Source: Aureimonas sp. AU22 (lineage in GTDB: Bacteria > Pseudomonadota > Alphaproteobacteria > Rhizobiales > Rhizobiaceae). Taken from it: DNA of 64,000 nucleotides. Where the stretch lies: NCBI RefSeq assembly GCF_001463745.1, contig NZ_BBWJ01000040.1, positions 1-64,000 of the forward strand. The letters run 5' to 3'. Position numbers and translations under genes: made by a program. Under the pieces are notes generated by a model that had not been told where the DNA came from, searched no databases, and saw only the letters and a program-made list of their open reading frames with translations. Within the stretch, counting starts at the first letter, position 1; every line of letters starts with the position of its first letter. This document shows positions 2,681-18,539 of this stretch, piece after piece.

Positions 2681-3046
2681 TCAGAAGCTGTCCGAGCCCG
2701 GTACGATCGCCCCGATGCCGGCGGAACCCGCGGAAGGATTTGCGCCAGGCGTGCCGTGGATCACGCTCATGATGGCGTCGCGCTCGGCAGCGTCGTCGAC
2801 AGAACGGGAACCGGGAACGAGGGCACCGCTCGATGCGGTGGCGTTCGGAAAGCCGTAGGTCGACCGATCGACGACCGTGCCGCGGCCGCCCCTTGATGCG
2901 GTGCCCTCGATCACGGACATGACGGCAGCGCCGTCGCGAGCCCGCTCGTAGGTGTCGGAGCCGGGGACGACGGCCTGGGCGGTGGACATCGTGCCGAGCG
3001 AAGCGGCTGCGAGAAGGGCGGAGGCAATGATGCGGGTCTTGGTCAT
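2681..3046 (-). CDS. Small secreted protein with internal VPGS/MSVI repeats
   Basis: A 121-residue protein of unknown function. A Sec signal peptide (MTKTRIIASALLAAASLG...AQA) is followed by an internal repeat: VVPGSDTYERARDGAAVMSV, then LVPGSRSVDDAAERDAIMSV, and a final IVPGSDSF. Each MSVI is followed by xGT. The start has GAGGA seven bases upstream. The gene is divergent from the two-component operon at 3345 and shares a 298-bp intergenic region with it, so control by that system is plausible. Small alphaproteobacterial envelope proteins with such repeats exist, but I cannot name this family. No catalytic motif is visible. Confidence 0.7.
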   Translation of the reverse strand: MTKTRIIASALLAAASLGTMSTAQAVVPGSDTYERARDGAAVMSVIEGTASRGGRGTVVDRSTYGFPNATASSGALVPGSRSVDDAAERDAIMSVIHGTPGANPSAGSAGIGAIVPGSDSF

Positions 3047-3255
3047 GGTCTTGTCCTCGGTAGGGCCTCGTACGGCCGTTGGATCGGGGAAGTCCGGAGG
3101 CAGTGGCGTCCCGGATACGACCGACACCGTCGATCGCTTCCCTGTGTTTGACGAGGGTCAGACTAGCCGCGGGCTGTCGCAGGGCTGTGCCGCAGTCGTC
3201 TTGATTTGTCCAAAAAGTGTATCGGATCGGGCAGTCGATCGAAAGCAACTGCCCG

Positions 3256-3268
3256 ACTTGCGACAAGT
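3256..3268. promoter_or_regulatory. Candidate regulator-binding palindrome
   Basis: The sequence ACTTGCGACAAGT is a 5-3-5 inverted repeat in the divergent region between the secreted repeat protein and the response regulator. The same core, TTGCGACAA, with palindromic flanks, recurs upstream of the paralogous two-component system at 56516. This is consistent with a site for an OmpR-type response regulator. Binding is inferred, not shown. Confidence 0.4.
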
Positions 3269-3344
3269 TGATACAGTTTTCCGCAGGCATCCAGGCGCGG
3301 ATTGCTCTATGTGTGTACGCTAATTGCCGCCTCGAGGCCGTCGG

Positions 3345-4064
3345 ATGGACAGCGCACCCCACATCATCATCGTCGACGACCACCAGGATATCCGCGATCT
3401 CGTCGGATCCTATCTGGAACAGCAGGGATATCGGGTGAGCGTGGCGGAAGGCGGCATGGCGCTTCGGCGCCTCCTGGAGCGATCCGTGCCCGATCTGATC
3501 GTACTCGACATCATGATGCCTGGTGACGACGGTCTGACGATGTGCCGCGAGATCCGCACCATGGGAGAGACACCCATCATCTTCCTGACGGCACGGGCCG
3601 AGGAGACCGACCGGGTCATCGGTCTCGAACTCGGTGCCGACGACTACCTGACCAAGCCCTTCTCGTCGCGGGAACTCCTTGCTCGCATCAAGGCCGTCCT
3701 TCGTCGCGTGAGGCCGACGGGCGCCCCGCGCGCCGTCCGGCGTCCATCCACCCTGCGCTTCGATCGTTGGACGCTCGACGTCAGCCGCCGCGAGTTGCAG
3801 GACGAGGACGGCGTCGGCGTCCCCTTGAGCACCGCCGAGTTCCGGCTCCTGAAGGTCTTCGTCGAGCATCCCGGTGCCGTCCTGACCCGCGACCAGCTCC
3901 TCGACCTCACCGTCGGGCGCGAGGCCGAGCCCTTCGACCGCGCCATCGACAACCAGGTCAGCCGCCTGCGCAAGAAGGTCGAGAGCGACCCGAAGAACCC
4001 GACCATCATCCTGACCCACTGGGGCGGCGGCTACAGCTTCGTGCCGGAGGTGACCGCGCCATGA
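3345..4064 (+). CDS. OmpR-family response regulator (first system)
   Basis: A 239-residue two-component response regulator. The receiver domain (about 1-120) has the acidic pair in VDDHQD, phosphoacceptor Asp in IVLDIMMP, conserved Thr in FLTAR and Lys in LTKPFSS. The C-terminal winged helix (about 140-235) carries LSTAEFRLLKVFVEHPG and the recognition-helix region AIDNQVSRLRKKVE. ATG at 3345 has GAGG upstream; a TTG at 3324 is possible but less likely. Its stop overlaps the kinase start as ATGA. It is closely paralogous to the regulator at 55677-56396, nearly identical in the receiver core. Confidence 0.95.
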   Translation: MDSAPHIIIVDDHQDIRDLVGSYLEQQGYRVSVAEGGMALRRLLERSVPDLIVLDIMMPGDDGLTMCREIRTMGETPIIFLTARAEETDRVIGLELGADDYLTKPFSSRELLARIKAVLRRVRPTGAPRAVRRPSTLRFDRWTLDVSRRELQDEDGVGVPLSTAEFRLLKVFVEHPGAVLTRDQLLDLTVGREAEPFDRAIDNQVSRLRKKVESDPKNPTIILTHWGGGYSFVPEVTAP

Positions 4065-5563
4065 CCATCGCATCGAACCACGCCACGGGATGGAAGCGCG
4101 CCCTGGGCCGGACGGCTCCCGATACCATGCGGTGGAGCCTGGCCTGCTGGTGGCGAAGGAGCTTGGCGATCCAGCTCCTGGCGTCGATGCTGATCGCTCT
4201 CTTCGGCAGCCTCACCTTCGGCCTCTACATCTGCTGGGACGAGTACAAAGGCGCCATCCAGAGTGCGGCACGCACGGAACTGCACAGCCGCTCGGCGGCG
4301 GTGGCGCGGCTGATGGAGGTCGCGACCCCCGACCTCAGGGACGAACTCGCTCGCGTCAACAGCACGCAGTACACGCGCTTCTGGGTCTCGCCGGGCGGCA
4401 CGCCGGATCTCGGCGGCTGGGTCGATGCCGCGTTCGTCCAGTTCCAGGTCCCGCTCCGCGACCTACTTGGCGACAGGGCCGAGGACGCCCCGGTCGGCAG
4501 CCCGGCGGCCGGACTGGTCTTTGAGGCGGATGCGACGAACGACCTGTTCCGTCGGGGAACTCGTTGGGATGGTCCCGTTGCCCAAGGCGCATCCGATAGA
4601 CCGCTTCTGGCACGATACCTCGACTACGCCGACGGAGACGGGGCCGGCGTCATCATTCCTCTGACCGACGGTCAGACGCTCAACGTCGCCTTCTACAAGC
4701 ACATCGTCCCTTCGATCTGGGCGACACCGCTTCCGTTGACGCTTGCCTTCACGGCAGGGCTGGTCGCGCTCGTTGGCGCCGTCACGGCCCGGCGCATCGC
4801 CCGTCCCCTGAGACAACTTACGATCGCGGCGGAAGCGTTAGGCCGCGGCGAGGCCGTGGAGCCCCTGTGCGAGTGCGGACCGGACGACATCCGCCGGACG
4901 TCGGAAGCCTTCAACCGGATGCAGGAACGGCTCCACCGCTTCGTTGACGATCGCACGCGGATGCTCGCCGCGATCAGTCACGACCTACGCACGCCACTCA
5001 CCACCCTCCGCCTGCGGGCGGAACTCGTCGGGGACCTGAACCTCCAGGGCCGCATGTTGTCGACGATCGACGAGATGCAGTCGATGACCGATGCCACGTT
5101 GGCTCTCATCCGCCAGGAGACGACTGCGGAGGCGACGCGCACGGTGGATCTCTGCGCGCTCGTCGAGAGCACCTGCGAGGATCTCGCCGAGCTTGGCCAC
5201 GACGTGACGTTCGAGACCAGCGAGCGTCTTCCCTACCGTTGCAGGCCGGATGGTCTGCGACGTGTCGTGCGCAACCTCGTCGAGAACGCCGCTCGATACG
5301 CTGGCAATGCGAACGTGCGCGTCGTCACCACGCGTTCGACCATCGAGATCGTCGTGGAGGACGACGGTCCCGGCATTCCGGCAGACAAGCTGGACGAGGT
5401 CTTCGCCCCATTCTACCGGCTCGAGGGATCCCGGTCCCGCGAGACAGGCGGGGCCGGCCTCGGCCTGTCGATCGCTCGAGCCATCGCACGGCAGCATGGT
5501 GGCGACATCGTTCTACGCGGTCGGTCGCCCGGACTGAGCGCGGTGGTCAGGCTCCCCGCCTGA
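4061..5563 (+). CDS. Sensor histidine kinase (first system)
   Basis: A 500-residue membrane kinase. The first membrane helix is near residues 35-60 and the second near 225-250, bracketing a periplasmic domain of about 165 residues. Next come HAMP (ITARRIARPLRQL region), the H-box AISHDLRTPLTTLRL, N-box NLVENAARYA, G1 DDGPGIP and G2 GGAGLGLSIA. The layout matches EnvZ/AdeS-type kinases. It starts inside the regulator's stop codon, so the pair is translationally coupled. The periplasmic domain aligns by eye with that of the kinase at 54265-55680, including the element TRFW, suggesting duplicated systems with diverged sensing. Confidence 0.94.
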   Translation: MTIASNHATGWKRALGRTAPDTMRWSLACWWRRSLAIQLLASMLIALFGSLTFGLYICWDEYKGAIQSAARTELHSRSAAVARLMEVATPDLRDELARVNSTQYTRFWVSPGGTPDLGGWVDAAFVQFQVPLRDLLGDRAEDAPVGSPAAGLVFEADATNDLFRRGTRWDGPVAQGASDRPLLARYLDYADGDGAGVIIPLTDGQTLNVAFYKHIVPSIWATPLPLTLAFTAGLVALVGAVTARRIARPLRQLTIAAEALGRGEAVEPLCECGPDDIRRTSEAFNRMQERLHRFVDDRTRMLAAISHDLRTPLTTLRLRAELVGDLNLQGRMLSTIDEMQSMTDATLALIRQETTAEATRTVDLCALVESTCEDLAELGHDVTFETSERLPYRCRPDGLRRVVRNLVENAARYAGNANVRVVTTRSTIEIVVEDDGPGIPADKLDEVFAPFYRLEGSRSRETGGAGLGLSIARAIARQHGGDIVLRGRSPGLSAVVRLPA

Positions 5564-5691
5564 CGCCGAATTACCCTCCTCGACGGCAGGCCACCACAGC
5601 CCTGTCGAGATCACCGGAACGCGGAAAGGACGGCGAAGCCAGCCTCCGATCCTCAACGCCGCCGCGTGTCGGCACCCCGTCGAAGGCCTGA

Positions 5692-6804
5692 ATGTTCCAT
5701 CTCAACTTCTCGGTCCCGTGCCTCTACGTGCTGGCACGCTTCCTGTTGCCGCTTCCTTGGTCCCGCCGTTCCAAGGTCGCCGCAGGCGTGCTGCTGCTCT
5801 TCGGGTCGCAGTTCCACCTCTGGAACCGGCTGTCTTCGGGATCGGTCTTCGCGCCGGAATTTCCGCAGGCCATCGTCGTCGCCTTCAACTGGGCGTTCGG
5901 CGCGATCCTGTTCCTCGCAATCCTCCAGATCGTGTTCGACGTTGTGGGAATCGCCACCCTGCCTTTCCGTCGGCCCGCGCCGATCGTGTCGACGAGGTTT
6001 CGGTACGGGGCAGCCGTGACCGCGATGCTACTCGCCGCCATCGCCGTCCATCAGGCGACACGCCTTCCGGAGTCGAAGGACATCGAGGTCGCGATCCCGA
6101 ACCTGCCGCCGGCGTTCGACGGGTACAGGCTCGTCCAGCTCACCGACCTCCATCTCAGCCGCCTCTTCCAGGCAGACTGGGCACGCGCCGTCGTGGAGCG
6201 CGCCAACGCGCAGGACGCGGACGTGATCGTCGTCACGGGAGACCTGATCGACGGTTCGGTCGAGGCGCGCCGTGAGGACGTGGCGCCGCTCGCCGACCTA
6301 CGTGCCCAGGACGGCGTGTGGATGATCCCCGGCAATCACGAATACTACTTCGGCTACGACGAATGGATGAGTCGTTTCGAGGAGCTGGGCCTCCAAGTCC
6401 TGACGAACCGCCACACGGTGCTGCGCAAGGACGGTGTGGCGATCGTCCTGGCTGGTCTCGCGGACCTCCGGGCGCCGGCGAACGGTCAGGACGGGCCGGA
6501 CATCGACGCGGCGCTGGCAGGCGCTCCGGCGGGAGCCTCCGTGATCCTCCTCGAGCACCAGCCGCGCAACGCTCCCGAGCGGGCGACACGTGCCGATCTG
6601 CAGCTATCCGGACACACGCATGGTGGCATGATCGTTGGGCTCGATCGCCTCTTCGCCCGAGCCAACAATGGGTTCGTATCGGGGATCTACGCCGTGGACG
6701 ACATGACCCTGTACCTGAGCAACGGCACCGGGCTCTGGCCTGGCTTCGCCCTCCGCCTTGGAAAGCCACCCGAGATCACCCGTATCACGCTGCGCCGTTC
6801 CTGA
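5692..6804 (+). CDS. Membrane-anchored metallophosphoesterase (YaeI-like)
   Basis: A 370-residue calcineurin-like phosphoesterase. Three or four hydrophobic helices (about residues 8-135) anchor it. The dinuclear metal motifs follow: TDLHLSRL (Asp, His), GDLID, GNHEYY, the His of LLEHQPRN, and GHTHGG. Members of the YaeI branch are often phosphodiesterases of membrane lipids such as UDP-diacylglucosamine; the substrate here is unknown. GAAGG lies upstream of the ATG. Its stop codon is 18 bp before the left end of a Tn7-like transposon, so the gene's 3' end is the probable attachment target of that element's TniQ protein. Confidence 0.9.
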   Translation: MFHLNFSVPCLYVLARFLLPLPWSRRSKVAAGVLLLFGSQFHLWNRLSSGSVFAPEFPQAIVVAFNWAFGAILFLAILQIVFDVVGIATLPFRRPAPIVSTRFRYGAAVTAMLLAAIAVHQATRLPESKDIEVAIPNLPPAFDGYRLVQLTDLHLSRLFQADWARAVVERANAQDADVIVVTGDLIDGSVEARREDVAPLADLRAQDGVWMIPGNHEYYFGYDEWMSRFEELGLQVLTNRHTVLRKDGVAIVLAGLADLRAPANGQDGPDIDAALAGAPAGASVILLEHQPRNAPERATRADLQLSGHTHGGMIVGLDRLFARANNGFVSGIYAVDDMTLYLSNGTGLWPGFALRLGKPPEITRITLRRS

Positions 6805-6817
6805 GAGCGGTAGCGGA

Positions 6818-6822
6818 CGGCC
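6818..6822. repeat. Left target-site duplication (CGGCC)
   Basis: These five bases immediately precede the TGT terminus of the Tn7-like element and are repeated exactly at 17565-17569 after its ACA terminus. A 5-bp duplication is the hallmark of Tn7/Tn5053/Mu-type DDE transposition. Confidence 0.85.
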
Positions 6823-6893
6823 TGTCGTAGTTCGCACGGTGGTTCGCCCAGGCCCGTGGTCGTGCATCGGCCCGCGGGTCGACTGCCTCGTCC
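6823..6893 (+). repeat. Left transposon end with TnsB-type sites
   Basis: After the terminal TGT, a first site GCACGGTGGTTCGCCCAG begins 11 bases in. It matches the right-end sites (GGTTTGCCTCAG type). A weaker second copy, GTCGACTGCCTCGTCCG, lies at about 6878-6893. The remaining noncoding stretch to 7256 shows an AT-richer patch near 7085-7145, probably the promoter of the first cargo gene. I see no other feature there. Confidence 0.65.
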
Positions 6894-7256
6894 GTTGCGG
6901 GCCGACCGGGCGACGCCGGCATTCCGCGACGGATCGCGCCACTTCGATACACCGGAGGTGCGCGTCGTGCCGCGACTTTCGGACCGAAGCCCCGAGATGA
7001 AGTGCTGATCTGCGCCTGGACCATCGGATCGGATGATCAAATCACCAGTCGACAGTTAGCCGACCGTTCACCAACGGCGCCATTACACAGCGTCAGCTCA
7101 TGAACGACCGTTGATTTATCAGTCTAACGCAACAATTATGATATCACGCCGAACGATAGATCCGGCGTACTGGAAACAGATCGTCATCGGGCGGTCACCA
7201 CGACGTTTGCGGCGTCGCGGCGACCTGACCACGGAATCGCTTTAGGGAGCGAATAC

Positions 7257-7553
7257 ATGGATACGCTGGAATACACGCAGTTCGACAACTCGCACAACCA
7301 TCAAATCGGACATGCTCCGAGCATGGTTAAGCATTCGTTCAGGACGAACCTCACGCGAGGACAGATCGATCTTCTCGAGATGCTTCCCGAACGGGACGAC
7401 GTGATCTTGCTCGACGATGCGGTGGCCATCGTCTCGCGAACCGGGCGGCAGGCCTACGGGCAGATCGTCACCCTCATCAACCGCGGCGCGATCGCCGTCG
7501 AGTTCCTTCGCCATCCTACGGTCGACCCGGAGATCATCCTGCGTCGCCTCTGA
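7257..7553 (+). CDS. Cargo protein 1, unknown (98 aa)
   Basis: The product is not recognised. It is a 98-residue soluble protein with a polar, histidine-containing start followed by a compact segment (residues about 35-98) rich in Leu, Ile and Val: RGQIDLLEMLPERDDVILLD, then YGQIVTLINRG. No signal peptide or membrane helix is seen. The ribosome site AGGGAG is well placed. It is the first gene inside the transposon and heads a co-directional set ending with the DnaQ-like gene. It may be a regulator or partner of the AAA protease, but nothing in the sequence proves that. Confidence 0.6.
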   Translation: MDTLEYTQFDNSHNHQIGHAPSMVKHSFRTNLTRGQIDLLEMLPERDDVILLDDAVAIVSRTGRQAYGQIVTLINRGAIAVEFLRHPTVDPEIILRRL

Positions 7554-7633
7554 CGTCATGCGCATCGCGTCATCGACGGATTCGCCCTCCTCTCGTCAGT
7601 CGCAGGCCTGAAGCAGGCCGAAGGAACATCATC

Positions 7634-7921
7634 ATGTATCATCCGACACCGGACGCCCCGTGTTCCGGCGACCGCCTTCGCACGCCCGATCGTGCGTCGT
7701 GTGAAATCGTCTCGATGCCCCCCTCGCTTATCGTGGGGGCAGCCATCCGAGCCGCCAGGCGCGGAGCCGCCCCGTCGATCCTCTCGTCTCTGGCCCGCGA
7801 CCTCGAGGCGCTCGCCGAGGACGGCGACTGCGTCGCCCCCTTCGTCTTGACCTGGCTTCGCGTCCAGTCCTGTGGTTCGGCCGAGAACACTGTCACGCAC
7901 GGGGAGACGGCCCATGGGTGA
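7634..7921 (+). CDS. Cargo protein 2, unknown (95 aa)
   Basis: A 95-residue protein without a recognised domain. A central helical segment (SLIVGAAIRAARRGAAPSIL, followed by SSLARDLEALAEDGD) looks amphipathic. Its last 8 bases overlap the start of the AAA protease gene, so translational coupling is likely and a functional link is plausible. GAAGGAAC lies upstream of the ATG. It could be an adaptor or substrate of the protease; that is inference from coupling alone. Confidence 0.5.
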   Translation: MYHPTPDAPCSGDRLRTPDRASCEIVSMPPSLIVGAAIRAARRGAAPSILSSLARDLEALAEDGDCVAPFVLTWLRVQSCGSAENTVTHGETAHG

Positions 7922-9827
7922 AACGAACTTCTCGCAGGGCCTGACGATGCCCGATCAGTTGCCCGACTCCGACGTCTTCGATGCCATCGAGGACGCCCGC
8001 TGCGAGGCGGTCCGATACCTCAGCCCAGGTCTCTATGCGATGCACCGCGAGCTTCTCGCGGCATTCCCGAAGGAGGCCGTCGAGAAGATCTGCGGCGGGA
8101 CCCTGCCGCTCGTGATCGGCCTCCGGTCGGCGTTCCACGGTATCGACCTGATGACGGCGGCAAGGGCGACGATCGAGTTCATCGCAGCCGACCTTGCACC
8201 GAGGCAACCGCCGGTGATCGACATCATCGTCGAGGACAACGACGTCGCGACCGAGCGACAGCTCGTCAGGACGGGGCTTCTGGCCCGGCGATTGATCGTG
8301 TTGATCCGCGCGGATCCGCCTGTATCGGCCCACGATGCGCTTCTCGATGCTTGTGTCGACGTTCCGCCCGTCGGGGTCGCCGCCATTCGGGATACGCTGG
8401 AGCGCGAGTACGGCGAGGACACGGTACCGGACCTCGTCGGGTTGCCGTCCTCGATCGATTGCGACGTTCTCGATCTGGCGTGCACGAAGGCGGGAACGGT
8501 CGACGATGCGCTGAGGATCATCCAGTCGCTCGCGGCGACTTTGTCACGCAAGGCGATCGACCGCACCCCGCCCGTTCCCCTTCTGCAGGACATGCTCGGC
8601 TATGGCGAGGCGATGACGTGGGCGACTGACCTTCTGTCGGACATGGCCGCCTACCGCTCCGGCGAGATCGCCTGGGGCGACGTCTCTTCGCGGGCACTTC
8701 TGGTGGGACCACCCGGAACGGGCAAGACGTCGCTTGCCGCGTCCATTGCGAGGACCGGTGGCCTTGCCTTCTTCCCGACGTCGTATGCCTCCTGGCAGAG
8801 GTCGGGTGACGGCCATCTCGGCGATCTGCTGAAGGAGATGGTGGAGGTGTTCCGTCAGGCGGCGACGGCTGCGCCATCGCTTGTGTTCATCGACGAGATC
8901 GATTCGGTTCCCTCCAGATCCGCCTCCCGACGCTCGAGCGGATGGTGGCGCTCGGTCGTCAACGCTCTTCTGGAACGCCTCGACGGGGCGGAACGGCAGG
9001 CCGGCGTCGTGGTGATCGGAGCCTGCAACGACGACAGCAATCTCGACCCGGCCCTGATCCGGGCTGGACGCCTTGATCGCCGCCTTTTCATCGACCTTCC
9101 CGACGGGCGGACATTCGCAGGTATCCTGGCGTCGCATCTCGGCAGCACCGTTTCGCCGGACTCACTGACAGGCATCGCGTCGCAGATCGCCGGGTCGCTG
9201 TCGGGAGCCGATGCGGCGCGCATCGCCAGGGATGCCAGGAGGATCGCACGTAGGGCGGGACGAGCCGTGTGCCTCGCCGATGTGGAAGCCATCGCGCTCC
9301 CGGCGGAGACGAGATCCGCAGACGAGGTCTGGAGGATCGCCGTGCATGAGGCGGGCCATGCCGTCGTGGCACTGGCAAGCGGTGTCGTGCCGTCTCGAGC
9401 CACTCTTCTCGTCGGTGTCCGGTCGAGAGGAAGCGTCGTGATCGACGAGACGCACCGAAGCGAGACGTTGGCCGGGGATCTGGATACCGACGCGAGGATC
9501 GCGCTCGGCGGACGGGCGGCCGAAACGGTTCTTCTGGGTTCACCATCCACCGGGTCCGGCGGATCCGGGACGTCGGATCTGGCTCTAGCCACGGGTACCG
9601 TACGAGCCGGCCTGTCGCTGTTCGGGTTCGGCGACACTCTGGTACACGGGGCCGCCGTCGATCCCGCGGTCCTCGCCGCACGCCTCGGAGATCTGTTCGA
9701 CGAAGCCGTCGACATAGTCTCCCGGCATCGGACCGCGGTCGAAACACTGGCGCGACTGCTCGTCCATCGACGCACGCTGACCGGCATCGATCTGAGCCAG
9801 TTCGCTCAAGAGAACGGGCTCGACTAG
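7914..9827 (+). CDS. Soluble AAA+ ATPase fused to M41 (FtsH-like) metallopeptidase
   Basis: A 637-residue protein. Residues 1-230 form an unrecognised N-terminal domain in place of FtsH's membrane helices. The AAA+ module has Walker A GPPGTGKT (from about 265), Walker B FIDEID (about 325) and sensor/arginine-finger region ALIRAGRLDRR. The peptidase has zinc motif HEAGH (478-482) and a third ligand Asp at about 555 in GTSDLALAT, aligned with FtsH's downstream Asp. All catalytic residues appear present. It would be an ATP-dependent cytosolic protease or unfoldase. GGGGAG lies 7 bases before the chosen ATG. It is cargo of the Tn7-like element and a reasonable candidate for a defence or conflict function, which is untested. 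Confidence 0.85.
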   Translation: MGETNFSQGLTMPDQLPDSDVFDAIEDARCEAVRYLSPGLYAMHRELLAAFPKEAVEKICGGTLPLVIGLRSAFHGIDLMTAARATIEFIAADLAPRQPPVIDIIVEDNDVATERQLVRTGLLARRLIVLIRADPPVSAHDALLDACVDVPPVGVAAIRDTLEREYGEDTVPDLVGLPSSIDCDVLDLACTKAGTVDDALRIIQSLAATLSRKAIDRTPPVPLLQDMLGYGEAMTWATDLLSDMAAYRSGEIAWGDVSSRALLVGPPGTGKTSLAASIARTGGLAFFPTSYASWQRSGDGHLGDLLKEMVEVFRQAATAAPSLVFIDEIDSVPSRSASRRSSGWWRSVVNALLERLDGAERQAGVVVIGACNDDSNLDPALIRAGRLDRRLFIDLPDGRTFAGILASHLGSTVSPDSLTGIASQIAGSLSGADAARIARDARRIARRAGRAVCLADVEAIALPAETRSADEVWRIAVHEAGHAVVALASGVVPSRATLLVGVRSRGSVVIDETHRSETLAGDLDTDARIALGGRAAETVLLGSPSTGSGGSGTSDLALATGTVRAGLSLFGFGDTLVHGAAVDPAVLAARLGDLFDEAVDIVSRHRTAVETLARLLVHRRTLTGIDLSQFAQENGLD

Positions 9828-9961
9828 GCAACTCCGTGATTCGACGGATCCGTTGCTCGGCGCGGAGGCGCCTCCGCCTGCCGTGCGGCCTCGGTCCGCG
9901 ACACAGCCACCGCTCCGCTCCTCACCATTCCCCGAATATGATGCTTCCCGTGAGGTCCACG

Positions 9962-10819
9962 ATGTCCATCGACCCCTCAACGCCCGTTCCTCGGTTCACC
10001 CACGGTATGGGCAAGGGCCCCCGCCGCGACGAGGACGAGGCGAGCGCCATTCGCCTCGGCGAGACTGGGCTCTACCGCGTCCTGCGGAGGCTGCCGCCGC
10101 CTGTCTTCATCCACCCGCGGGTCGACGACTACAGCCCGGTCGTCCTGATCAGTTCGTCTCCCGTCGTCCCGCGAGGACGGGCCGGAACCGGCGTCGGCTC
10201 AGTTCTCCTCGCCACCTACGATCATCTGGGCGTGCACGCACCATTCGGACGCCTCAGGACGGACCCGTCGATTGGGTCGACCGTGGTCGACGGCCACGAC
10301 CTGACCTTGGCGTCCGTCCTGGAGAGCGTCCGACTGACGCTCTCCCACGATGCTTCCGACGGGCTGGCCTCCCTGCGCGCGGAGCATCCTGGCCTGCAGT
10401 CGGTTCCGCGTGTCGCCGTGGGTCACACCGTTCCATGGTCCACCTACGGGATCGACGGCACGGGGCTGGATTCGATCCTGGCGCATCACGGCCGATTCAC
10501 CGACACTTCGGATCCGGACGACGCCTGCATTGCGCTGCACGCCGTCCTGACCGAGGATTTCTGGGACGGGCATATGCGCGGGCCGTTTTCGCATGTGCTT
10601 GCGGCCGTTTCGTCACAGCGCGTCCGGGTCGAGATGACGGGTGCGACGTTCAGGATCCGGGATGCGCTCAAGGCCAGGGGCTGGAGGTTCAGCGACGGGA
10701 CCGGGTCGATTCCGAAGGGCTGGCATCTGACAGCCGCACGACCGGACGCGCAACGCGAGGTCCAGTGGGTCGAGCAGATGCTGGACGACGACGTGCGCGT
10801 GTCGATCCGGGAGACATAG
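9962..10819 (+). CDS. Degenerate DnaQ-like (DEDD exonuclease fold) cargo protein
   Basis: A 285-residue protein. Its second half follows the layout of PolIII-epsilon-like exonucleases: LSHDASDGLASLR in place of AHNAxFDR, then PWSTYGIDGTGLDSILAHHG, then SDPDDACIALHAVL in place of HRALDDCRALL. A C-terminal element, LKARGWRFSDG...KGWH, is typical of related stand-alone exonucleases. The first catalytic motif (normally DxETTG) reads LISSSPV, so nuclease activity is probably lost. The role may be nucleic-acid binding. ATG at 9962 has GAGG upstream; the frame is open from 9836. This family call is my own alignment by eye and is moderately secure. Confidence 0.55.
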   Translation: MSIDPSTPVPRFTHGMGKGPRRDEDEASAIRLGETGLYRVLRRLPPPVFIHPRVDDYSPVVLISSSPVVPRGRAGTGVGSVLLATYDHLGVHAPFGRLRTDPSIGSTVVDGHDLTLASVLESVRLTLSHDASDGLASLRAEHPGLQSVPRVAVGHTVPWSTYGIDGTGLDSILAHHGRFTDTSDPDDACIALHAVLTEDFWDGHMRGPFSHVLAAVSSQRVRVEMTGATFRIRDALKARGWRFSDGTGSIPKGWHLTAARPDAQREVQWVEQMLDDDVRVSIRET

Positions 10820-11366
10820 TACTGACACACCCGCTCAATCAGTCTACTGATTCTGTGTACGAATATTATCGCCGTGCGATGGCAGTTTCGACGTTGCGGT
10901 AGACCGCAATTCCACCGTCGCCAATCCGCCGCAAAGCGAATCGGTCAGCGCAACAAATCGAGTTTTGGGATATCTTTCAGGTACTTAGGTGCTCTGAAAA
11001 GTTATGGTAGCTGCGGTACCGGGGGGAGTCCACCGGCTTGCGGAAAGAAAAATCCGTGCCCTTTTCCGAGTCGTCGACGCATCGGATGGCGTCTGAACCG
11101 GAGGATACGATGCACTGATTACCAAAATGAAAAACGCCACTCCGTTAGCCGCGGAGTGGCGCTGATTTCAAACCGGACGGGCCAAGCCACGAAGCAACCC
11201 CGATCCGACTCACTTCACTGACAGACGAGCCGTCGCTCGCCTGAGCCCGTTGTCGCCGATCGCGTGTTTGCGGTCAAGCGTCGGCGGCCGGGGATCCGCG
11301 ACGCTCGCAGGAGCAACGCGCCATGACGAGCCCCCGACGCCTCCGGCCGGATCGTGAGATCCGCAC
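10820..11366. other. 547-bp noncoding interval before tnsA
   Basis: There is no convincing gene here; the short frames lack ribosome sites and family features. It holds the hairpin at 11135-11161 and presumably the tns promoter. The composition is lower in GC than the neighbours (many A/T runs near 10850-11050). A weak resemblance to a TnsB site (GGCAGTTT at 10881) is noted but not claimed. Confidence 0.5.
11135..11161 (-). terminator. Hairpin with T-tract on the minus strand
   Basis: CGCCACTCCG pairs with CGGAGTGGCG across a 7-base loop. Read on the minus strand it is followed by TTTTTCATTTT, a good intrinsic terminator. On the plus strand the tract after it is poor. It could shield the cargo genes from antisense transcription or act on a leftward transcript upstream of tnsA. 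Confidence 0.6.
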
Positions 11367-12218
11367 GTGAGCGAGAAGACCATCATCCAGCACCTGCACG
11401 AGCGCCGCCTCGGTATCAGCTCGTACGACCGGCCCATGCCGGAAACGCCGATCTACCTGGCGCCGGACATGAACATGCCCGGACGGTTCGTCGGCTCCGA
11501 CGGAACGCCGCTCGACCGCTTCCTGCCCGGAGAGCACGACCGCACGGCGGTCGTCTGGTTCCCCTGCGACAAGACCACTGCCTCGCGTATCCCGGAGCGG
11601 CGTACCAAGCGTTCGTTCCGCATCCGCATGAACGATGTCGCCTCGAACCGCGAGATGGTGACGGAGAGCACCCTGGAATTCGACTTTCTGCGCATCATGC
11701 GGGCCGAGAGTCGTGACGCCGTGATTCATGACCAGCCGCCGGCCAGACGTTTCATCGGGCCGGATGGCGCGAAGGGCTGGCACACGTTCGACTTCCTGAT
11801 CGAAGAGCCGAGCGGGTCGCGCCTCGCGTATGCGGTCCGACCGATGGCGAAGATCGACCAGAAGCTTCGGACGGCGCTTCGGTGCGTCGAGGAGCAGAGC
11901 CTGGCCGCCTTCGCCGACGCGATCATCCTCGTGACGGAGACCTTCGTCACGGCAGCTAGAACGTTCAACGCGAACGAAATCCTCGATGCCCGTGAGAACC
12001 GCAACGAGGCGGACGTCCGACGGGCGAGGTCGATCGTCGACCGCATCCGCGGCGGCGTGATGCTCGACGACCTCGTGCAGGCGATCGGCATCGGTCCGCG
12101 CGGACGAACCGCCCTTCTCTGCCTCGTCGACGACGGCGTCCTGGACTTCGTGCGCCGCGAGCGCCTGACGGCCGCGACGCTCCTGCGCCCGGCAAACCCC
12201 GCCCTCAAGCCCAACTGA
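11367..12218 (+). CDS. tnsA: TnsA-like transposon endonuclease
   Basis: A 283-residue TnsA homologue, which in Tn7 cuts the 5' strands at the element ends in complex with TnsB. The restriction-endonuclease-like core is visible: STLEFDFLRIM (Glu104 matching Tn7 Glu63), HTFDFLIEE (Asp142 matching Asp114), and YAVRPMAKID, where Tn7 has VKPAK. The catalytic Lys132 position is therefore Arg158, with Lys162 nearby. The C-terminal half (about 185-283) would be the TnsC-interacting domain. The start is GTG. The gene ends 17 bp before tnsB. If Arg cannot support cleavage, the element might transpose replicatively; see findings. Confidence 0.85.
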   Translation: MSEKTIIQHLHERRLGISSYDRPMPETPIYLAPDMNMPGRFVGSDGTPLDRFLPGEHDRTAVVWFPCDKTTASRIPERRTKRSFRIRMNDVASNREMVTESTLEFDFLRIMRAESRDAVIHDQPPARRFIGPDGAKGWHTFDFLIEEPSGSRLAYAVRPMAKIDQKLRTALRCVEEQSLAAFADAIILVTETFVTAARTFNANEILDARENRNEADVRRARSIVDRIRGGVMLDDLVQAIGIGPRGRTALLCLVDDGVLDFVRRERLTAATLLRPANPALKPN

Positions 12219-12235
12219 TCCAGAAGGAGCCCAGC

Positions 12236-14416
12236 ATGAACGCCCTGACGAAAATCGAGGAAGACGTTCCCATCTACGAAGTCGCCCCACGGAGCCGCTG
12301 GGTGACGGGCGGTGTCGAGTACATCTACGAAGAGCGTCTGCCCGGTGGTCACAAGGTCGCCCGCGTGGACGACATGAAGGTCAACGAGACCTTCACGCAC
12401 GTCCACCTTCACCACCTGATCCAGGCGAGCGAAATCGTCATCGACGAAGGCTTCTTCTCGTCCGTGAAGGCGAACCTGCGCCTCATGACCGGCAAGAAGA
12501 CCTTCTCGGATCTGACGCAGGCACAGGCCGTGAAGGTCATTTACAAAAAGGCGTGGTGCGACCGCTATCTGCGTCTCGAGGCGAGCGACAGGAGCGTCAA
12601 GAGATCCGACGCGAAGCTCGAGATCGCCATCAAGCGTATCTCGGAGGAGTTCAGGACCGAACGTAAAACGGCCGACGAGCGCCGTCGGGCCGAGAACGGC
12701 CTCAAGAAGAAGCGCGGTGGATCGAAGCAGGAAAGCGCGCCGACCGATCCTAGCGTGTGCCAGATTCGTAGGTGGGTCGCCCGGTACCAGAAGGGCGGTT
12801 ACCACGAGGATGCACTGATCGACCTCTACAATGGTCCCGGTCCGAAGCGCACGGTTCTCTGCGCGGAGGGATACGAACTGCATTCACGGTTCGCCGCAGG
12901 GTACGCCAGTTCGACTCGACCCTCGATGCGGCAGCAGTTCGATCTGCTCGAGATCGCCCTGAACGATGCCGATGCCAAGCGCGCCGAGACGGGCAAGCCC
13001 CCTCTCCGCCGTCTGAAGCGCAAGGCGTTCGAGGCGATGATCAACGCTCTCGACCCGTTCTTCGTGACGCTGGGCCGCGAAGGTCCTGACGCCGCCCTAC
13101 GCCTTCATGGCATCGTCAATCAGGGTCTCGACGTCGAGAAGCCGTTCGAGCGCCTGGAGATGGACGAGTGGAACGTTTCCTTGATGCGCATCCTCATCGA
13201 TGCCGGCGTCTGGGGCTTGCTCGAGGACTGGCAGCGCGAAGCCGTCGAACGTGCCCGTGTCTGGCTTTCGGTCGCGATCGACGCTCGCACGCGCATGATC
13301 GTGGCGATGCGCTTCCTGCCCGCCGCACCGTGCGTCGAGAGCGCCCTGTCGACGATCGAACTGGCGATGACCGACAAGTCCCGGATCGCAGTCCATGTCG
13401 GCGCCAGACGCACCTACCTTCATGCCAAGCCACGCTCCATCGTGATGGACAACGGCGTGAACTATGTGGCCGACGACGTCATACTTGCTCTGGTCCGCCT
13501 CAACATCAATCCGGTCCACCCGCCGGCGGGCCTGAAGGAAATGCGCGGAAGGGTCGAGCGCATCTTCGGCACCCTCAAGACGAAGATCGCGTCCTATTTC
13601 AGCGGGCAGACGTTCTCCAACGTGGTCGAGAAGGGCGCCTATGACGCCCAGGCCAATGCGATCGTAAACGTTGACGAGCTGAACCGCCTCTTCGTCGTCG
13701 GGGTGCTCGATCTCTACCACAACCATCCGCATGAGGGTCTGCAAGGCGAGACGCCGTATGACTGCATGCGCCGACTCAGCGGAGTGTACGGTCTCCCGCT
13801 GCCGCCCAACCGCGACGTCCTGCGCCACGTGATGGGTGTCTCCTGCCAACGCCGCATCGGGGCCGAGGGGATCCGCTTCCTCGGCATCCGCTACCAGTCG
13901 TCCGAACTCCAGCGCCTGCGTCGCCGGATGGGCCAGAGGCCCGTCGAGATCAGGATCGATCGTTTCGACCTGTCCAGCATCTCGGTCAGGCACGACACCG
14001 GTGGCTGGATCGTCTGCGATGCGCGCTTCGTCGGCCTTGAGAACGTCAGCATCTGGCAGTGGACGGAAGCCGTCCGCGACCTCCAGCACCGCAACGCCTC
14101 CGTGGCGGCGTTGTCCCGTCACCACGTTCTGTCCGCGGTGCGCACGTTGAGCGAAGCGGCGGCGGCAGCCGTCGAGCGGGCCGAGATCGCCAATCCCGTC
14201 CTCACCGCGACGGTGTTCGAACAGTTCGAACGGGCCCTCTTCAAGGGGTTCGAGTTCGTCGACGACGGCGCGTACGGAGACGATCTGCAGCTCCCCGCCG
14301 ATCTGGCGAGGCAGGTCGCCACGACGGACCTCGCCACTTCCGACACGCCAGAGCACGGTGAGGGCGACGAGCAGGACGACACGTTCGGCGATGCGACGGA
14401 CTGGGGTTCGGACTGA
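12236..14416 (+). CDS. tnsB: TnsB DDE transposase
   Basis: A 726-residue DDE recombinase that recognises the element ends and joins 3' ends to target DNA. The catalytic triad is visible as Asp310 (LEMDEWNVSL), Asp405 (IVMDNGVNY) and Glu441 (MRGRVERIFG), giving the family's D-x35-E spacing. The N-terminal 300 residues contain the basic, helix-rich DNA-binding region; the C-terminus after 560 has the beta-barrel and an acidic tail typical of TnsC contact. AAGGAG precedes the ATG. The stop overlaps tnsC by one base. The length and motifs indicate an intact enzyme. Confidence 0.95.
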   Translation: MNALTKIEEDVPIYEVAPRSRWVTGGVEYIYEERLPGGHKVARVDDMKVNETFTHVHLHHLIQASEIVIDEGFFSSVKANLRLMTGKKTFSDLTQAQAVKVIYKKAWCDRYLRLEASDRSVKRSDAKLEIAIKRISEEFRTERKTADERRRAENGLKKKRGGSKQESAPTDPSVCQIRRWVARYQKGGYHEDALIDLYNGPGPKRTVLCAEGYELHSRFAAGYASSTRPSMRQQFDLLEIALNDADAKRAETGKPPLRRLKRKAFEAMINALDPFFVTLGREGPDAALRLHGIVNQGLDVEKPFERLEMDEWNVSLMRILIDAGVWGLLEDWQREAVERARVWLSVAIDARTRMIVAMRFLPAAPCVESALSTIELAMTDKSRIAVHVGARRTYLHAKPRSIVMDNGVNYVADDVILALVRLNINPVHPPAGLKEMRGRVERIFGTLKTKIASYFSGQTFSNVVEKGAYDAQANAIVNVDELNRLFVVGVLDLYHNHPHEGLQGETPYDCMRRLSGVYGLPLPPNRDVLRHVMGVSCQRRIGAEGIRFLGIRYQSSELQRLRRRMGQRPVEIRIDRFDLSSISVRHDTGGWIVCDARFVGLENVSIWQWTEAVRDLQHRNASVAALSRHHVLSAVRTLSEAAAAAVERAEIANPVLTATVFEQFERALFKGFEFVDDGAYGDDLQLPADLARQVATTDLATSDTPEHGEGDEQDDTFGDATDWGSD

Positions 14417-15531
14417 TGACGGAGAACACCGACGAGGACGTCTTCCCTGGCGACATCCAGATCGTAGACGCCGACATCGCGGCCCGCATGGACGAAAGGT
14501 CCATGCGGGTCGCCACCCGTATGGCCAATATCCGGGCTCGACATCTGTCGACGAAGCGCGACCGGGACATCAAGACCGAGCTGACCCTTCTCGTGGCCAA
14601 TGCCACGGTCCGCACCAAGGGAGATACGGCAGGAGGCTGCCTTGCACTGATCGGTGGCACGGGGGCTGGCAAGTCATGCAGCATCGCGAAGGCGATAGCC
14701 GCCTGTCCCGAGTTTCTGCCACGTGTAACTGGAATGACCGAAACGGCCCCGATCCTTACCATCCTGGCGCCCCGTCCCTCCGATCTTCTTCAGATCGCGT
14801 ACGAGGGGCTCGAGAAACTGGGATACCCGCTCGAACGGGATCTGAAGCCACCGGCTGCCTGGAAGCTACTGCGCAGGCAACTGCGCGCCCGTCAGGTGCG
14901 CTTCCTGCATATCGACGAGGCCCAGCACATGCTGAACGTCGGTGATCCGGATTCGATGAAGGAACTGTCCGACGCCTTGAAGATGCTTCTGGAGGATCGT
15001 GACTGGCCGGTGAGTCTGATCCTGACGGGGATGCCGGAACTGGCGGATTTCCTTTCCATCTACCGACAGATCCAACGTCGGAGCAGGAAGATCATCCTGC
15101 ATGAACTGCGCTACCCCCAGGACGAGGAACTGATGTCCTGGATCGTCAGTACGATCGTCACTAAACACGCCAAGCTGAAGATCAACTTCGAATGGGGTGG
15201 CAACTTCCTGGCGCGGCTCCATCACGCGGCCAATCGACAGTTCGGAACTTTGACCCAGATCGTCCGGGCGTCCATCGAACGCGCGCTCGTGGAGAACCCC
15301 GAGGCCGTCACGGTCACCAAGGCGCACTTCATTCAGGCGTATGCGCTCTTCTCCGGATGCGCGCCGGAGCAGAACATCATATCGGCCCGCGACTGGGAGG
15401 CGATCGAGCCGCTCAACGCCCTCCTTCGCGAGGAAGAGGAGGCCTACACCCGTCTTCTTCAGACGCTCGCCGACAGGGAGAAGGAGCTACGTGCCCGCCG
15501 CAGACGCCGCAGGAAGAAGGACGAGAACTGA
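14416..15531 (+). CDS. tnsC: TnsC AAA+ transposition regulator
   Basis: A 371-residue AAA+ ATPase that links the target selector (TniQ/TnsD) to the TnsAB transposase and mediates target immunity. Walker A is GGTGAGKS (from about residue 80) and Walker B is FLHIDEAQ (Asp167-Glu168), the form usual for the TniB/TnsC family. The C-terminus is highly charged (KELRARRRRRRKK), suited to DNA or TnsA contact. It is coupled to tnsB (TGATG overlap) and to tniQ (TGATG), so the three proteins are made from one message. Confidence 0.93.
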   Translation: MTENTDEDVFPGDIQIVDADIAARMDERSMRVATRMANIRARHLSTKRDRDIKTELTLLVANATVRTKGDTAGGCLALIGGTGAGKSCSIAKAIAACPEFLPRVTGMTETAPILTILAPRPSDLLQIAYEGLEKLGYPLERDLKPPAAWKLLRRQLRARQVRFLHIDEAQHMLNVGDPDSMKELSDALKMLLEDRDWPVSLILTGMPELADFLSIYRQIQRRSRKIILHELRYPQDEELMSWIVSTIVTKHAKLKINFEWGGNFLARLHHAANRQFGTLTQIVRASIERALVENPEAVTVTKAHFIQAYALFSGCAPEQNIISARDWEAIEPLNALLREEEEAYTRLLQTLADREKELRARRRRRRKKDEN

Positions 15532-17357
15532 TGTTGAAGATCGTCGTACCGCTCAACGTCGGTGAAACCCCCGCCAGCCTGTGCTCACGCCTCGCGCAGG
15601 CGAACGGTCGCGAGCGCATGCTTGATTTCGCCCTCGACGTCGGTCTGGATCTGGCCGGCGTCGTGGCAGGTCAGCCGGAACCGCTGGACCGTCTGGCGGA
15701 CCTGTGCGGTTGCTGCCCGGATATGCTGCGCGAATGGGCCCCCATGACGGTCGATGGTGCCGCATACCTTCGGGGGGAGCAACTCGGGCGCCGGAAGCTT
15801 CGCCGGAACAGGGTATTCGCCTGCACCGCCTGCCTGCTTTGCGATCTCGAGAACGACGACATCGATCGTGAGGTACGCCCATGGGGCCGTGCGCTCTGGC
15901 AGGTTCGCTCGCTCCGTACCTGCCGCATACATCATCAGGAACTCAGGCAGGTCGCCCATACGACGGAAACGGGGTTCCATCATGACGTCGCCGCTCTCGT
16001 CGGTCCTGCGATTGCCGACCTCCCTGCCCTCCACGAGGCTTCGGAGCGACGCAGGCCTTCAAGGCTGGAAGATTACGTTCACGCGCGTCTGACCGCAGGT
16101 TCGGGAAGGAACGGATTTCTCGATGGATTGCCCCTCTATGCTGTGACGCGGACATGCGAGACCCTCGGCGCCGTTATCGAATACGGTCCGGAGAAAAGTG
16201 CCGAGGATCTCACGGAGCACGATCTCTGGATGGCTGGAGAGAGGGGCTTCAAGGCGATGTCGAAGGGGGAACCGGGCATCCGGTCCGCCCTTGATCGCCT
16301 TCAGTGCGCATTCCAGATCACCAGCGGAGACTGGGGGATCGCCAAGTTCTACGGCCGCTTCCACGACTGGCTGGCCCGAGATGAAGACCACGTCTACGAC
16401 CCGATCCGGGACATCGTCTTTCGCCACACCGTCGACACGTTGCCGGTCGGGCCGGGCGAGGTCGTTCTGAACCGGGAAGTGACCGAACGTCGGATGCACT
16501 CGATGCACTCGGCGTCGCGTGAATACGGCCTGCACCCGAAGCGTCTGCGCAAGATTCTGATCGCGGAAGGGATCCTGTCGCCGGAAGACGCGGGTAGGCA
16601 CTACGAGCGCATTCTCATACCTGTCGACCGCGTGGCAAAGCGCGCAGCCGAGTTGTCGGACGCGATGTCCCTGACCAGAGCACAATCGTATCTGAATTCC
16701 GGTGAGGTGCAGACGCGGCTGCTCTTCGAAGCAGGCATCATCCGACCCATCGTGCTTGGGGGAACGCTTGCGCACAGCTCCCACGGCTTCCTCAAGGACG
16801 ACCTTGATGCGTTTCTCTCGAAGCTGAGATCGTCCTGCCGTCCGGGCGTCCGAGGCGTTACCATCCCGCAGGCAGCGCGACGTGCCAAGTGCGCGAGCAT
16901 GTTCATCGTTGCCCTGCTTCTCGAAGGGCGTCTTAAGAAGGTGGGGCTCGACGATAAGGAGCACGGCTACCTGGCGGTTCTGGTCGATGTTGCCGAAGTG
17001 ATTTCCTTCCTCGAACGGGAAAATCCTGTCGGCCTCTCTCTGCAGATGGTCGAGAAGCGGATGCGGTGGTCGTTCGCGGTCGTGACGGGTTTGATCGATG
17101 GAGGCCACCTTCCATTTGCGGAGGTCCGCAATCCGGTGACTGGCCAGCGTCAACGGATCGTCCGAGAAACCGACCTGAAGGCTTTCGACAACACTTTCGT
17201 CAGCCTCCATTCGGCGGCATCCGAAAGAGGGACCCACTTCCGTAAGCTAAAGGCTGATTTGGCCGCGCGTGGCGTGATGCCGGATCCGGCGTTTGTCGGG
17301 GTTCCGGCAACATTCTTCAGGCGGTCGGGAATCGAGGAAGCGCTCCCCCGGAGTTAG
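15531..17357 (+). CDS. tniQ: TniQ/TnsD-type target-site selector
   Basis: A 608-residue TniQ-family protein. The N-terminal TniQ domain (about 1-170) begins PLNVGETPASLCSRLAQANG and contains zinc-ligand clusters CGCCPDML, CTACLLCD and CRIHH. The long C-terminal half contains helix-turn-helix-like segments (for example DAMSLTRAQSYLNSGEVQTR and VTIPQAARRAKCASMFIVAL), as in TnsD proteins that read a specific attachment site. The size is above Tn7 TnsD (508). The element's position suggests it recognises the 3' end of the metallophosphoesterase gene. The start was placed at the ATG overlapping the tnsC stop; the frame is open much further upstream. Confidence 0.88.
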   Translation: MLKIVVPLNVGETPASLCSRLAQANGRERMLDFALDVGLDLAGVVAGQPEPLDRLADLCGCCPDMLREWAPMTVDGAAYLRGEQLGRRKLRRNRVFACTACLLCDLENDDIDREVRPWGRALWQVRSLRTCRIHHQELRQVAHTTETGFHHDVAALVGPAIADLPALHEASERRRPSRLEDYVHARLTAGSGRNGFLDGLPLYAVTRTCETLGAVIEYGPEKSAEDLTEHDLWMAGERGFKAMSKGEPGIRSALDRLQCAFQITSGDWGIAKFYGRFHDWLARDEDHVYDPIRDIVFRHTVDTLPVGPGEVVLNREVTERRMHSMHSASREYGLHPKRLRKILIAEGILSPEDAGRHYERILIPVDRVAKRAAELSDAMSLTRAQSYLNSGEVQTRLLFEAGIIRPIVLGGTLAHSSHGFLKDDLDAFLSKLRSSCRPGVRGVTIPQAARRAKCASMFIVALLLEGRLKKVGLDDKEHGYLAVLVDVAEVISFLERENPVGLSLQMVEKRMRWSFAVVTGLIDGGHLPFAEVRNPVTGQRQRIVRETDLKAFDNTFVSLHSAASERGTHFRKLKADLAARGVMPDPAFVGVPATFFRRSGIEEALPRS

Positions 17358-17392
17358 GGCCGGCCAATCCAAACAGGTTTTGTCTGAACATG

Positions 17393-17416
17393 AACCCCGC
17401 CTTCGAGCGGGGTTTT
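17393..17416 (+). terminator. Intrinsic terminator after tniQ
   Basis: AACCCCGC pairs with GCGGGGTT across the loop CTTCGA and runs into TTTTCTG. It lies 35 bp after the tniQ stop and should end the tnsABC-tniQ transcript just before the right transposon end. Confidence 0.85.
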
Positions 17417-17444
17417 CTGTTGCTTGTCGACCGCAGCCTCGTCG

Positions 17445-17564
17445 AACTGAGGCACACCTATGCTGCCACGACATCCGACCAGGATGCCGAAAACAACCTC
17501 GGCGCCTAAAATAACAATGCCTTACGTGATAAACTGAGGCAAACCAAACTGCCCGTCATAGACA
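17445..17564 (-). repeat. Right transposon end with two TnsB-type sites
   Basis: Read inward from the terminus, TGTCTATGACG leads into GGCAGTTTGGTTTGCCTCAG (17534-17553). A second copy, GGCAGCATAGGTGTGCCTCA, lies at 17448-17467, 87 bp further in. A third, decayed copy may sit between them near 17485. The terminus ACA at 17562-17564 is followed by the duplication CGGCC. Confidence 0.8.
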
Positions 17565-17569
17565 CGGCC
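17565..17569. repeat. Right target-site duplication (CGGCC)
   Basis: An exact repeat of 6818-6822, directly after the ACA terminus of the Tn7-like element. Confidence 0.85.
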
Positions 17570-17621
17570 AATAAGTCCAACTCAGGGGCAATATCATATA
17601 CCTGCGCAGGAGGCGGCGGAC

Positions 17622-17695
17622 TGAGTGAAAGCGGCACGATGGTTTGCCTCAGCGAACTCTGAAACATCCGCCGTGGCACGGTAGGTGTGCCGCAG
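17622..17695 (+). repeat. Decayed second left-type transposon end
   Basis: TGAGTGAAAGC is followed 11 bases in by GGCACGATGGTTTGCCTCAG (17633-17652) and, 43 bp later, by GGCACGGTAGGTGTGCCGCA (17675-17694). Both point away from the intact element's right end and resemble its left site. The terminus reads TGA where TGT is expected. This looks like the relic left end of an older, related element lying in tandem. Confidence 0.55.
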
Positions 17696-17767
17696 TTTCC
17701 GGTGGCCCCGAAAGTGGCCTCCGGACCGGAGTCCGGCGGAGCTGACCACCTCTCATGCATCACGGCC

Positions 17768-17807
17768 AGAAGGGCCCGGGCGGGCTTCGATCCGCCCGGG
17801 CCCTTCT
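17768..17807. terminator. Strong 16-bp hairpin
   Basis: A perfect 16-bp inverted repeat (AGAAGGGCCCGGGCGG and its complement) flanks the 8-base loop GCTTCGAT. No U-tract follows on either strand. It may be a bidirectional transcription barrier left in the remnant zone. The interval 17696-18017 otherwise holds only an unrecognised short frame on the plus strand (from 17915, beginning MDGTKADPTYLAHG), which I do not call as a gene. Confidence 0.6.
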
Positions 17808-18017
17808 GATTCAGCGCCGGCCCCGCCAGGGCGCAGCGAAATCCACTCGATGGAATGCAGGCGAATGGCAGTCCTCGGTCTCAACTCCAGTAAGGCAAAC
17901 TGCATTTTTGCTTCATGGACGGCACGAAGGCTGATCCGACCTACCTCGCGCACGGGTGCCATCGCTTCGACGTCGACCAACCGCAGCCGGAGTTGGCCAA
18001 CTACTTCAAGCAGACGT

Positions 18018-18507: not shown

Positions 18508-18539
18508 CCCGTCCCGCAGCCGACGTTGGACCGGCCCTG

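What the first reader, a model, noticed from the sequence alone, without database searches (positions are those of the whole stretch)
6823..17564. Complete Tn7-like transposon at a new-looking attachment site behind a metallophosphoesterase gene
TGT...ACA termini with repeated TnsB-type sites are flanked by an exact 5-bp duplication, CGGCC (6818-6822 and 17565-17569). The left end lies 18 bp after the metallophosphoesterase stop, very like Tn7 at glmS. Metallophosphoesterase is not among the attachment genes I know for TnsD/TniQ systems (glmS, tRNA, SRP RNA, yhiN, parE, guaC, comM). Also, tniQ rather than tnsA is next to the terminus, so gene order relative to the ends is reversed compared with Tn7.
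Basis: partly seen in the sequence, partly recalled or inferred. Interest (0 to 1): 0.88.

Follow-up and report, generated by a model that had tools for sequence, protein, structure and literature searches.

The report
Giant Tn7-like transposon behind nrdJ
The stretch is not a small complete transposon behind a phosphoesterase gene but the right-hand end of a roughly 87-kilobase Tn7-like transposon whose left end sits just behind nrdJ, a DNA-building-block enzyme gene that many related giant elements appear to use as their landing site.

Summary
The Tn7-like machinery is real: TnsA, TnsB, TnsC and TniQ lie at 11367-17357, with a genuine right end at 17560. The 'left end' at 6823 with CGGCC repeats is no better than chance. 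The true left end is on another contig of the same genome (C39:57060), 23 nt after the stop codon of nrdJ (class II, B12-dependent ribonucleotide reductase). C39 and C40 are adjacent by collinearity with a relative, so the element is about 87.5 kb and the metallophosphoesterase is internal. An automated test (5-bp duplication plus 24-bp inverted repeat, L behind nrdJ, R behind tniQ) succeeded in 13 of 27 genomes and in 0 of 702 cross-genome pairs. Those insertions lie 12-49 bp after the nrdJ stop; the eight measured on one contig span 41-118 kb. nrdJ is not named as a Tn7 attachment site in the papers I could search. Open: how elements with different ends share one 73-kb block.

The parts
17561..17565 (.). 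right copy of the 5-bp target duplication GACAC; left copy at G000:C39:57055-57059, positions 19-23 after the nrdJ stop
17534..17560 (-). right terminus: 7-nt tip plus outer TnsB-type site (GGCAGTTTGGTTTGCCTCAG read inward); 27 bp identical in inverted orientation to the left end behind nrdJ
17445..17470 (-). inner right-end TnsB-type site
17395..17416 (+). hairpin plus T-run after tniQ (intrinsic-terminator-like)
   Evidence: read; similar hairpins after tniQ in L059 and L060 (read)
15492..17357 (+). tniQ, about 621 aa, target selector (start codon not settled)
   Evidence: Pfam TniQ 8.7e-11; relatives; tree
14416..15531 (+). tnsC (TniB/AAA)
   Evidence: Pfam TniB, AAA_22; VchTnsC 7.3e-5
12236..14416 (+). 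tnsB, DDE transposase
   Evidence: Mu-transpos_C; aligns to a solved TnsAB fusion, 1.7e-12, through D, D and E
11367..12218 (+). tnsA endonuclease homologue; invariant E104, H139, D142 in 13 rows; Arg in the V-K/R-P motif (Arg in 6, Lys in 9 of 15 rows)
   Evidence: fold match to Tn7 TnsA, E 3.9e-6, TM-score 0.35-0.38; alignments
9836..10819 (+). accessory protein with partial similarity to a 3'-5' exonuclease family
   Evidence: NCBIfam NF006615 2.5e-18, below its cut-off; homologues in L066, L068, L071
7914..9827 (+). AAA+/M41 (FtsH-like) metalloprotease homologue, Walker A/B and HExxH conserved in 8 aligned sequences
   Evidence: homologue in 9 of 20 related loci
7257..7553 (+). 98-aa protein before the AAA gene
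   Evidence: homologues in L060, L067
5692..6804 (+). metallophosphoesterase, inside the element and not the attachment gene
6818..6825 (.). CGGCC+TGT taken for the left end; chance level
1..17560 (+). right part of the element (the rest is G000:C39:57060-126955)
17626..17812 (+). left-end remnant of another, presumably older, related element: sites 17633-17652 and 17672-17697, hairpin 17773-17808

Best explanation
The window holds the right 17.6 kb of an approximately 87.5-kb Tn7-like transposon inserted 23 nt behind nrdJ. Shown by sequence: the two ends, the 5-bp duplication, the TnsABC-TniQ genes next to the nrdJ-distal end, and insertion of relatives at the same place in other genomes. Inferred: TniQ binds the 3' coding end of nrdJ, TnsC joins it to TnsAB bound at both ends, and TnsAB inserts the element 12-49 bp past the stop codon, so that nrdJ stays intact. 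The metallophosphoesterase, two-component genes, a short-Argonaute defence pair near the left end and the AAA+ protease module are cargo or accessory genes. A left-end remnant just beyond the right end suggests that an older element used the site before.
For: G000: TSD GACAC and 24/24 inverted repeat (27 bp in all) between C39:57060 and window 17560; of 401 GACAC occurrences in the 227,094 bases of this genome that I held (of 4.63 Mb) it is the only one above 13/24. Across genomes: 13 of 27 own pairs score at least 18/24 with an exact 5-bp duplication, 0 of 702 crossed pairs (max 17) and 0 of 270 pairs with shuffled right flanks (max 17). C39 end and C40 start map 13 bp apart on G009. In 21 genomes other than G000 with a tniQ match and nrdJ on one contig, 14 have tniQ on the nrdJ strand 23-115 kb downstream. 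Part of the flank past G018's right end matches what follows nrdJ in G003, which has no tniQ match (77.6% over 299 columns, starting 139 bp past the end).
Against: A 73-kb block (C39:61135 to C40:6794) is collinear with G009 at mostly 82-92% identity, although G009's element has other ends and only about 34% identical TniQ, so the stretch may not have moved as one simple unit. 14 of 27 pairs stayed below 18, among them 6 of 14 same-contig cases; 7 of 21 same-contig genomes have tniQ on the opposite strand. The contig join is inferred. Outside the family 0 of 8 pairs reached 18 (best 17). No exact empty site was found for G000.
Confidence: 0.9

Rival explanations
1. A composite island: successive Tn7-like insertions behind nrdJ, deletions and exchange of end and tns modules, so that outer ends L and R belong to one insertion but much of the interior arrived otherwise.
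For: 73-kb block shared with G009 but with different ends and tns genes; two probes from it match near full length in only 2 of 21 genus genomes; left-end remnant beyond R; left-end-like sequence beyond R in G325, G086, G425.
Against: One exact duplication and a perfect inverted repeat bracket the whole. Capture of cargo before a single insertion explains this as well.
Confidence: 0.35
2. One reading: a complete 10.7-kb element at 6823-17564 behind the metallophosphoesterase.
For: CGGCC flanks; a weak TnsB-like site at 6833; collinearity with G009 stops at the end of the phosphoesterase gene.
Against: 10/24 inverted repeat, chance-level duplication; the right end pairs with nrdJ; the gene is in none of 20 related tniQ stretches.
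Confidence: 0.03
3. The nrdJ co-location reflects integrase-type islands at nrdJ, with Tn7-like elements only carried inside them.
For: G081 has a displaced 3' end of nrdJ 1.27 kb past tniQ, as integrase islands leave.
Against: 13 elements have 5-bp duplications next to inverted repeats; G081 itself scored only 13 in that test.
Confidence: 0.06

Closest known systems
Tn7-like transposons (TnsABC + TnsD/TniQ)
   Same: DDE TnsB, AAA TnsC, TnsA fold, TniQ; repeated end sites; 5-bp duplication; insertion just behind the 3' end of a conserved gene; defence genes as cargo (passages of PMC11406308, title and passages of PMC8649781; 5-bp duplication recalled)
   Different: attachment gene nrdJ; tips not TGT/ACA; the end far from the tns genes is next to the target and tniQ beside the distal end; eight elements of 41-118 kb, where medians of 14-29 kb and a maximum of 140 kb were reported (PMC8649781 passage)
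Tn7 itself at glmS (partly recalled, partly PMC11406308 passages)
   Same: targeting of a 3' coding end through a TniQ-domain protein
   Different: glmS and not nrdJ; TnsE not looked for; opposite orientation to the target (recalled)
Tn6022/Tn5053-type elements (PMC10293859, PMC11406308 passages; gene content recalled)
   Same: TniQ and TniB-like proteins
   Different: site is nrdJ, not comM or plasmid res sites; TnsA homologue present, unlike Tn5053 (recalled)

Membership tests
Tn7-like transposons (broad sense) | DDE transposase TnsB | tested here: met
Tn7-like transposons (broad sense) | AAA regulator TnsC | tested here: met
Tn7-like transposons (broad sense) | TniQ/TnsD selector | tested here: met
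Tn7-like transposons (broad sense) | TnsA endonuclease (usual, not universal) | tested here: met
   no Pfam, NCBIfam or credible PDB sequence hit, but Tn7 TnsA (1t0f, 1f1z) are the only fold hits with E under 0.001, at TM-scores of 0.35-0.40; Arg at the Lys position of the motif, activity unknown
Tn7-like transposons (broad sense) | repeated end sites, inverted ends, 5-bp duplication | tested here: met
Tn7-like transposons (broad sense) | site-specific insertion behind a conserved gene | tested here: met
   nrdJ, in 13 of 27 genomes tested
Tn7-like transposons (broad sense) | transposition activity | not testable with these tools
   needs a bench test
Tn7 sensu stricto | glmS attachment site | tested here: not met
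   attachment gene is nrdJ
Tn7 sensu stricto | TGT...ACA tips (recalled) | tested here: not met
   tip TATGACG in the window, TCTCAGC in G410; some relatives (G086, G353, G018) do begin with TGT
Tn5053/Tn402 | no tnsA; targets res sites (recalled, res sites also in PMC11406308 passage) | tested here: not met
   TnsA fold present; target nrdJ
CRISPR-associated transposons | CRISPR effector genes in the element | not tested
   no targeted search was made

The most novel reading that the evidence does not exclude
The 3' end of nrdJ is the ancestral attachment site of a large, divergent TniQ clade in Hyphomicrobiales. Giant Tn7-like elements of about 40-118 kb stack there in tandem, exchange end and tns modules while keeping cargo blocks, and may bring their own hairpin to replace the terminator that insertion cuts off from nrdJ.
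Probability: 0.5. Interest if true: 0.68.

Novelty: new variant of a known kind. Interest (0 to 1): 0.6.

Why it matters
It adds a metabolic 'safe site' to the short list of Tn7 attachment genes, shows where very large mobile islands enter in rhizobia-related bacteria, and gives a target-selector family with a clear predicted DNA target that can be tested and possibly used for large-cargo insertion. It also shows how easily a 5-bp duplication found by eye misplaces a transposon end in G+C-rich DNA.

Tried and rejected
Empty sites behind the metallophosphoesterase: of 60 relatives searched, six (G020, G009, G018, G010, G029, G034) align over the gene and the alignment ends at the gene end in all six, with no match to the sequence right of the element (I read the downstream flank of three), so no empty site could be read there. 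The flank 17565-19400 helped because it revealed the left-end module elsewhere. TniQ in viral contigs: no match. TnsB in genome contigs: two relatives at 56% identity, both Aurantimonadaceae, and one distant. TnsB in plasmids: 3635 records, all under 60% identity.

The first duplication test was wrong for minus-strand loci, because loci from the genome search keep contig orientation; one search replaces it. The first own-genome scan (part 2) used an end one base off and found nothing above 11/24; one search replaces it. The idea that left ends carry a substitute terminator is only suggestive: hairpins of at least 10 pairs in 12 of 13 left ends, but also in 119 of 260 shuffles and 37 of 58 interior windows, and the terminator scan found none at the G000 left end. 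In the TniQ tree (34 rows) the nrdJ-proven rows did not form one clade and were no more clustered than shuffled labels. Outside the family: 0 of 8 pairs at 18 or more, control of 48 crossed pairs max 16; best G514, 17/24 at +18, with tniQ 56 kb downstream of nrdJ on the same strand.

Rows dropped: G002 (nrdJ cut by a contig end) and G216 (nrdJ end not found by my pattern) were left out. Its 27 genomes are 25 of the 64 with a TniQ match plus G018 and G010, taken because I held both flanks. nrdJ was sought in 63 of those 64 (not G352).

Full report
What was claimed. A complete 10.7-kb Tn7-like transposon at 6823-17564, flanked by CGGCC, behind a metallophosphoesterase gene.

What is there. The window is G000:C40:1-64000. 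The genes at 11367-17357 encode a TnsA homologue (no Pfam or credible PDB sequence hit, but its AlphaFold model, mean pLDDT 81, has Tn7 TnsA 1t0f and 1f1z as its only fold hits at E under 0.001, with TM-scores of only 0.35-0.40), TnsB with the DDE residues aligned to a solved TnsAB, TnsC and TniQ. The right end carries two TnsB-type sites, at 17445 and 17532.

The left end fails. Three TSD+TGT left ends with CGGCC lie in 1-11367, and shuffled sequence gives 1.2 on average. The TnsB-like site at 6833 ranks eighth in the window with a score of 5.8; the real right end scores 33.8, but it is one of the seven sites the matrix was built from. None of the 20 related tniQ stretches held (7-20 kb) has the phosphoesterase. 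In G009 it lies inside the element, 38 kb upstream of tniQ.

Where the left end really is. A search with the right flank found, in the same genome on contig C39, a module carrying the tip and outer site of the window's right end in inverted orientation, directly behind a 1275-aa gene. That gene is nrdJ, class II ribonucleotide reductase. At C39:57055-57060 one reads GACAC followed by the element tip; at window 17560-17565 the tip followed by GACAC; 27 bp of the element ends are identical. Among 401 GACAC occurrences in the 227,094 bases of this 4.63-Mb genome that I held, no other comes above 13/24. The C39 end and the C40 start map 13 bp apart on G009 contig C12, so the element is about 69,896 + 17,560 = 87.5 kb. 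Near its left end it carries a restriction-type partner protein and a short Argonaute (PADLOC).

It is a family habit. TniQ matches were found in 64 of 394 family genomes and 9 of 21 genus genomes, own genome included. I sought nrdJ in 22 genomes (22 with a match), 15 (14 with a class II match, G006 only a weak one) and 48 (45 with a match, 43 of them near full length). In 21 genomes other than G000 a tniQ match and nrdJ share a contig: 14 have tniQ on the nrdJ strand, 23-115 kb downstream; 7 have it on the other strand, 8 kb to 2.2 Mb away. For 27 genomes I tested automatically whether a left flank behind nrdJ and a right flank behind tniQ share a 5-bp duplication next to a 24-bp inverted repeat. 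Thirteen score 18-24 (G000, G410, G145, G325, G009, G086, G023, G061, G353, G268, G141, G018, G425); no crossed pair of 702 exceeds 17, nor does any of 270 with shuffled right flanks. Their left ends lie 12-49 bp after the stop. Eight lie on one contig with nrdJ and are 41-118 kb long; G268, G141, G018 and G425 have nrdJ and tniQ on different contigs. Fourteen of 27 stayed below 18, six of them same-contig cases. Part of the flank after G018's right end (from 139 bp on) matches what follows nrdJ in G003, which has no tniQ match, at 77.6% over 299 columns: an occupied and empty pair, though not exact at the junction.

Neighbouring remnants. Sixty bp past the window's right duplication begins another left end (17626-17812), similar to left ends in G410, G007, G019 and G000 itself. 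Left-end-like sequence also follows the right ends of G325, G086 and G425. The site seems to be reused.

A puzzle. From C39:61135 to C40:6794 (73 kb) G000 is collinear, with gaps, with G009 at mostly 82-92% identity (one piece 76%), while ends, tns genes and TniQ (34%) differ. Two 3-kb probes from the block find a near-full match only in these 2 of 21 genus genomes; the others have partial, more distant matches. So it does not look like general core sequence of the genus. Either cargo was passed between element backbones, or ends and tns modules were exchanged around it. I leave this open; it is the main reason for not claiming that all 87.5 kb moved in one simple step.

Mechanism. Shown: ends, duplication, genes, repeated site. 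Inferred: TniQ reads the 3' end of nrdJ, which encodes a conserved Cys-rich tail (ends listed), TnsC bridges, and TnsAB inserts a short distance past the stop. The TnsA of this branch has Arg in a motif where 9 of 15 aligned rows have Lys and 6 have Arg; if that is the catalytic Lys known from Tn7 TnsA (recalled), cutting may be altered; not tested.

Literature. I saw passages, not whole texts, of PMC10293859, PMC8649781 and PMC11406308. Between them they name glmS, tRNA genes, comM, parE, guaC, yciA, ffs and rsmJ as sites; a search of their main texts for 'reductase' found no ribonucleotide reductase. Searches joining Tn7 or island terms with nrdJ, ribonucleotide reductase or Rhizobiales gave no paper that, by its listing, treats nrdJ as an attachment site; I did not read those listed papers. 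The library is open-access only, and supplementary tables were not readable.

Verdict. A new variant of a known kind: Tn7-like, with nrdJ as attachment gene.

Noticed in passing
G000:C4:119611-119704 (L013:1501-1594): An orphan copy of 94 bp from the end of the phosphoesterase gene (79% identical) stands between unrelated genes in the same genome.
   Followed up: partly
L071 (G081:C1:1044713-1044946): A displaced nrdJ 3' end, 79% identical in protein to the C39 gene, lies 1.27 kb past tniQ while the full nrdJ is about 107 kb away: an island bracketed by nrdJ ends.
   Followed up: partly
window 7257-10819: A 98-aa protein, an AAA+/M41 protease homologue with HExxH and an exonuclease-like protein sit before tnsA. 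The AAA gene has homologues in 9 of 20 related loci (7 on the tns strand) and at many other places in family genomes. PADLOC similarity to IetA covers only the AAA part (2.8e-20).
   Followed up: partly
G000:C39:57524-60303 (L099:12524-15303): Short Argonaute with its restriction-type partner, just inside the element's left end.
   Followed up: no
L074 (G145:C8:125001-145000): Two further tniQ-like genes lie on either side of a tRNA-Gly gene in the relative G145; a tandem tniQ pair is in G002:C45, and the tree pairs them.
   Followed up: no
window 54310-56381: On the minus strand, a region similar (71-74% identity, seen through relatives) to the response-regulator/histidine-kinase region at about 3.4-5.5 kb.
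   Followed up: no
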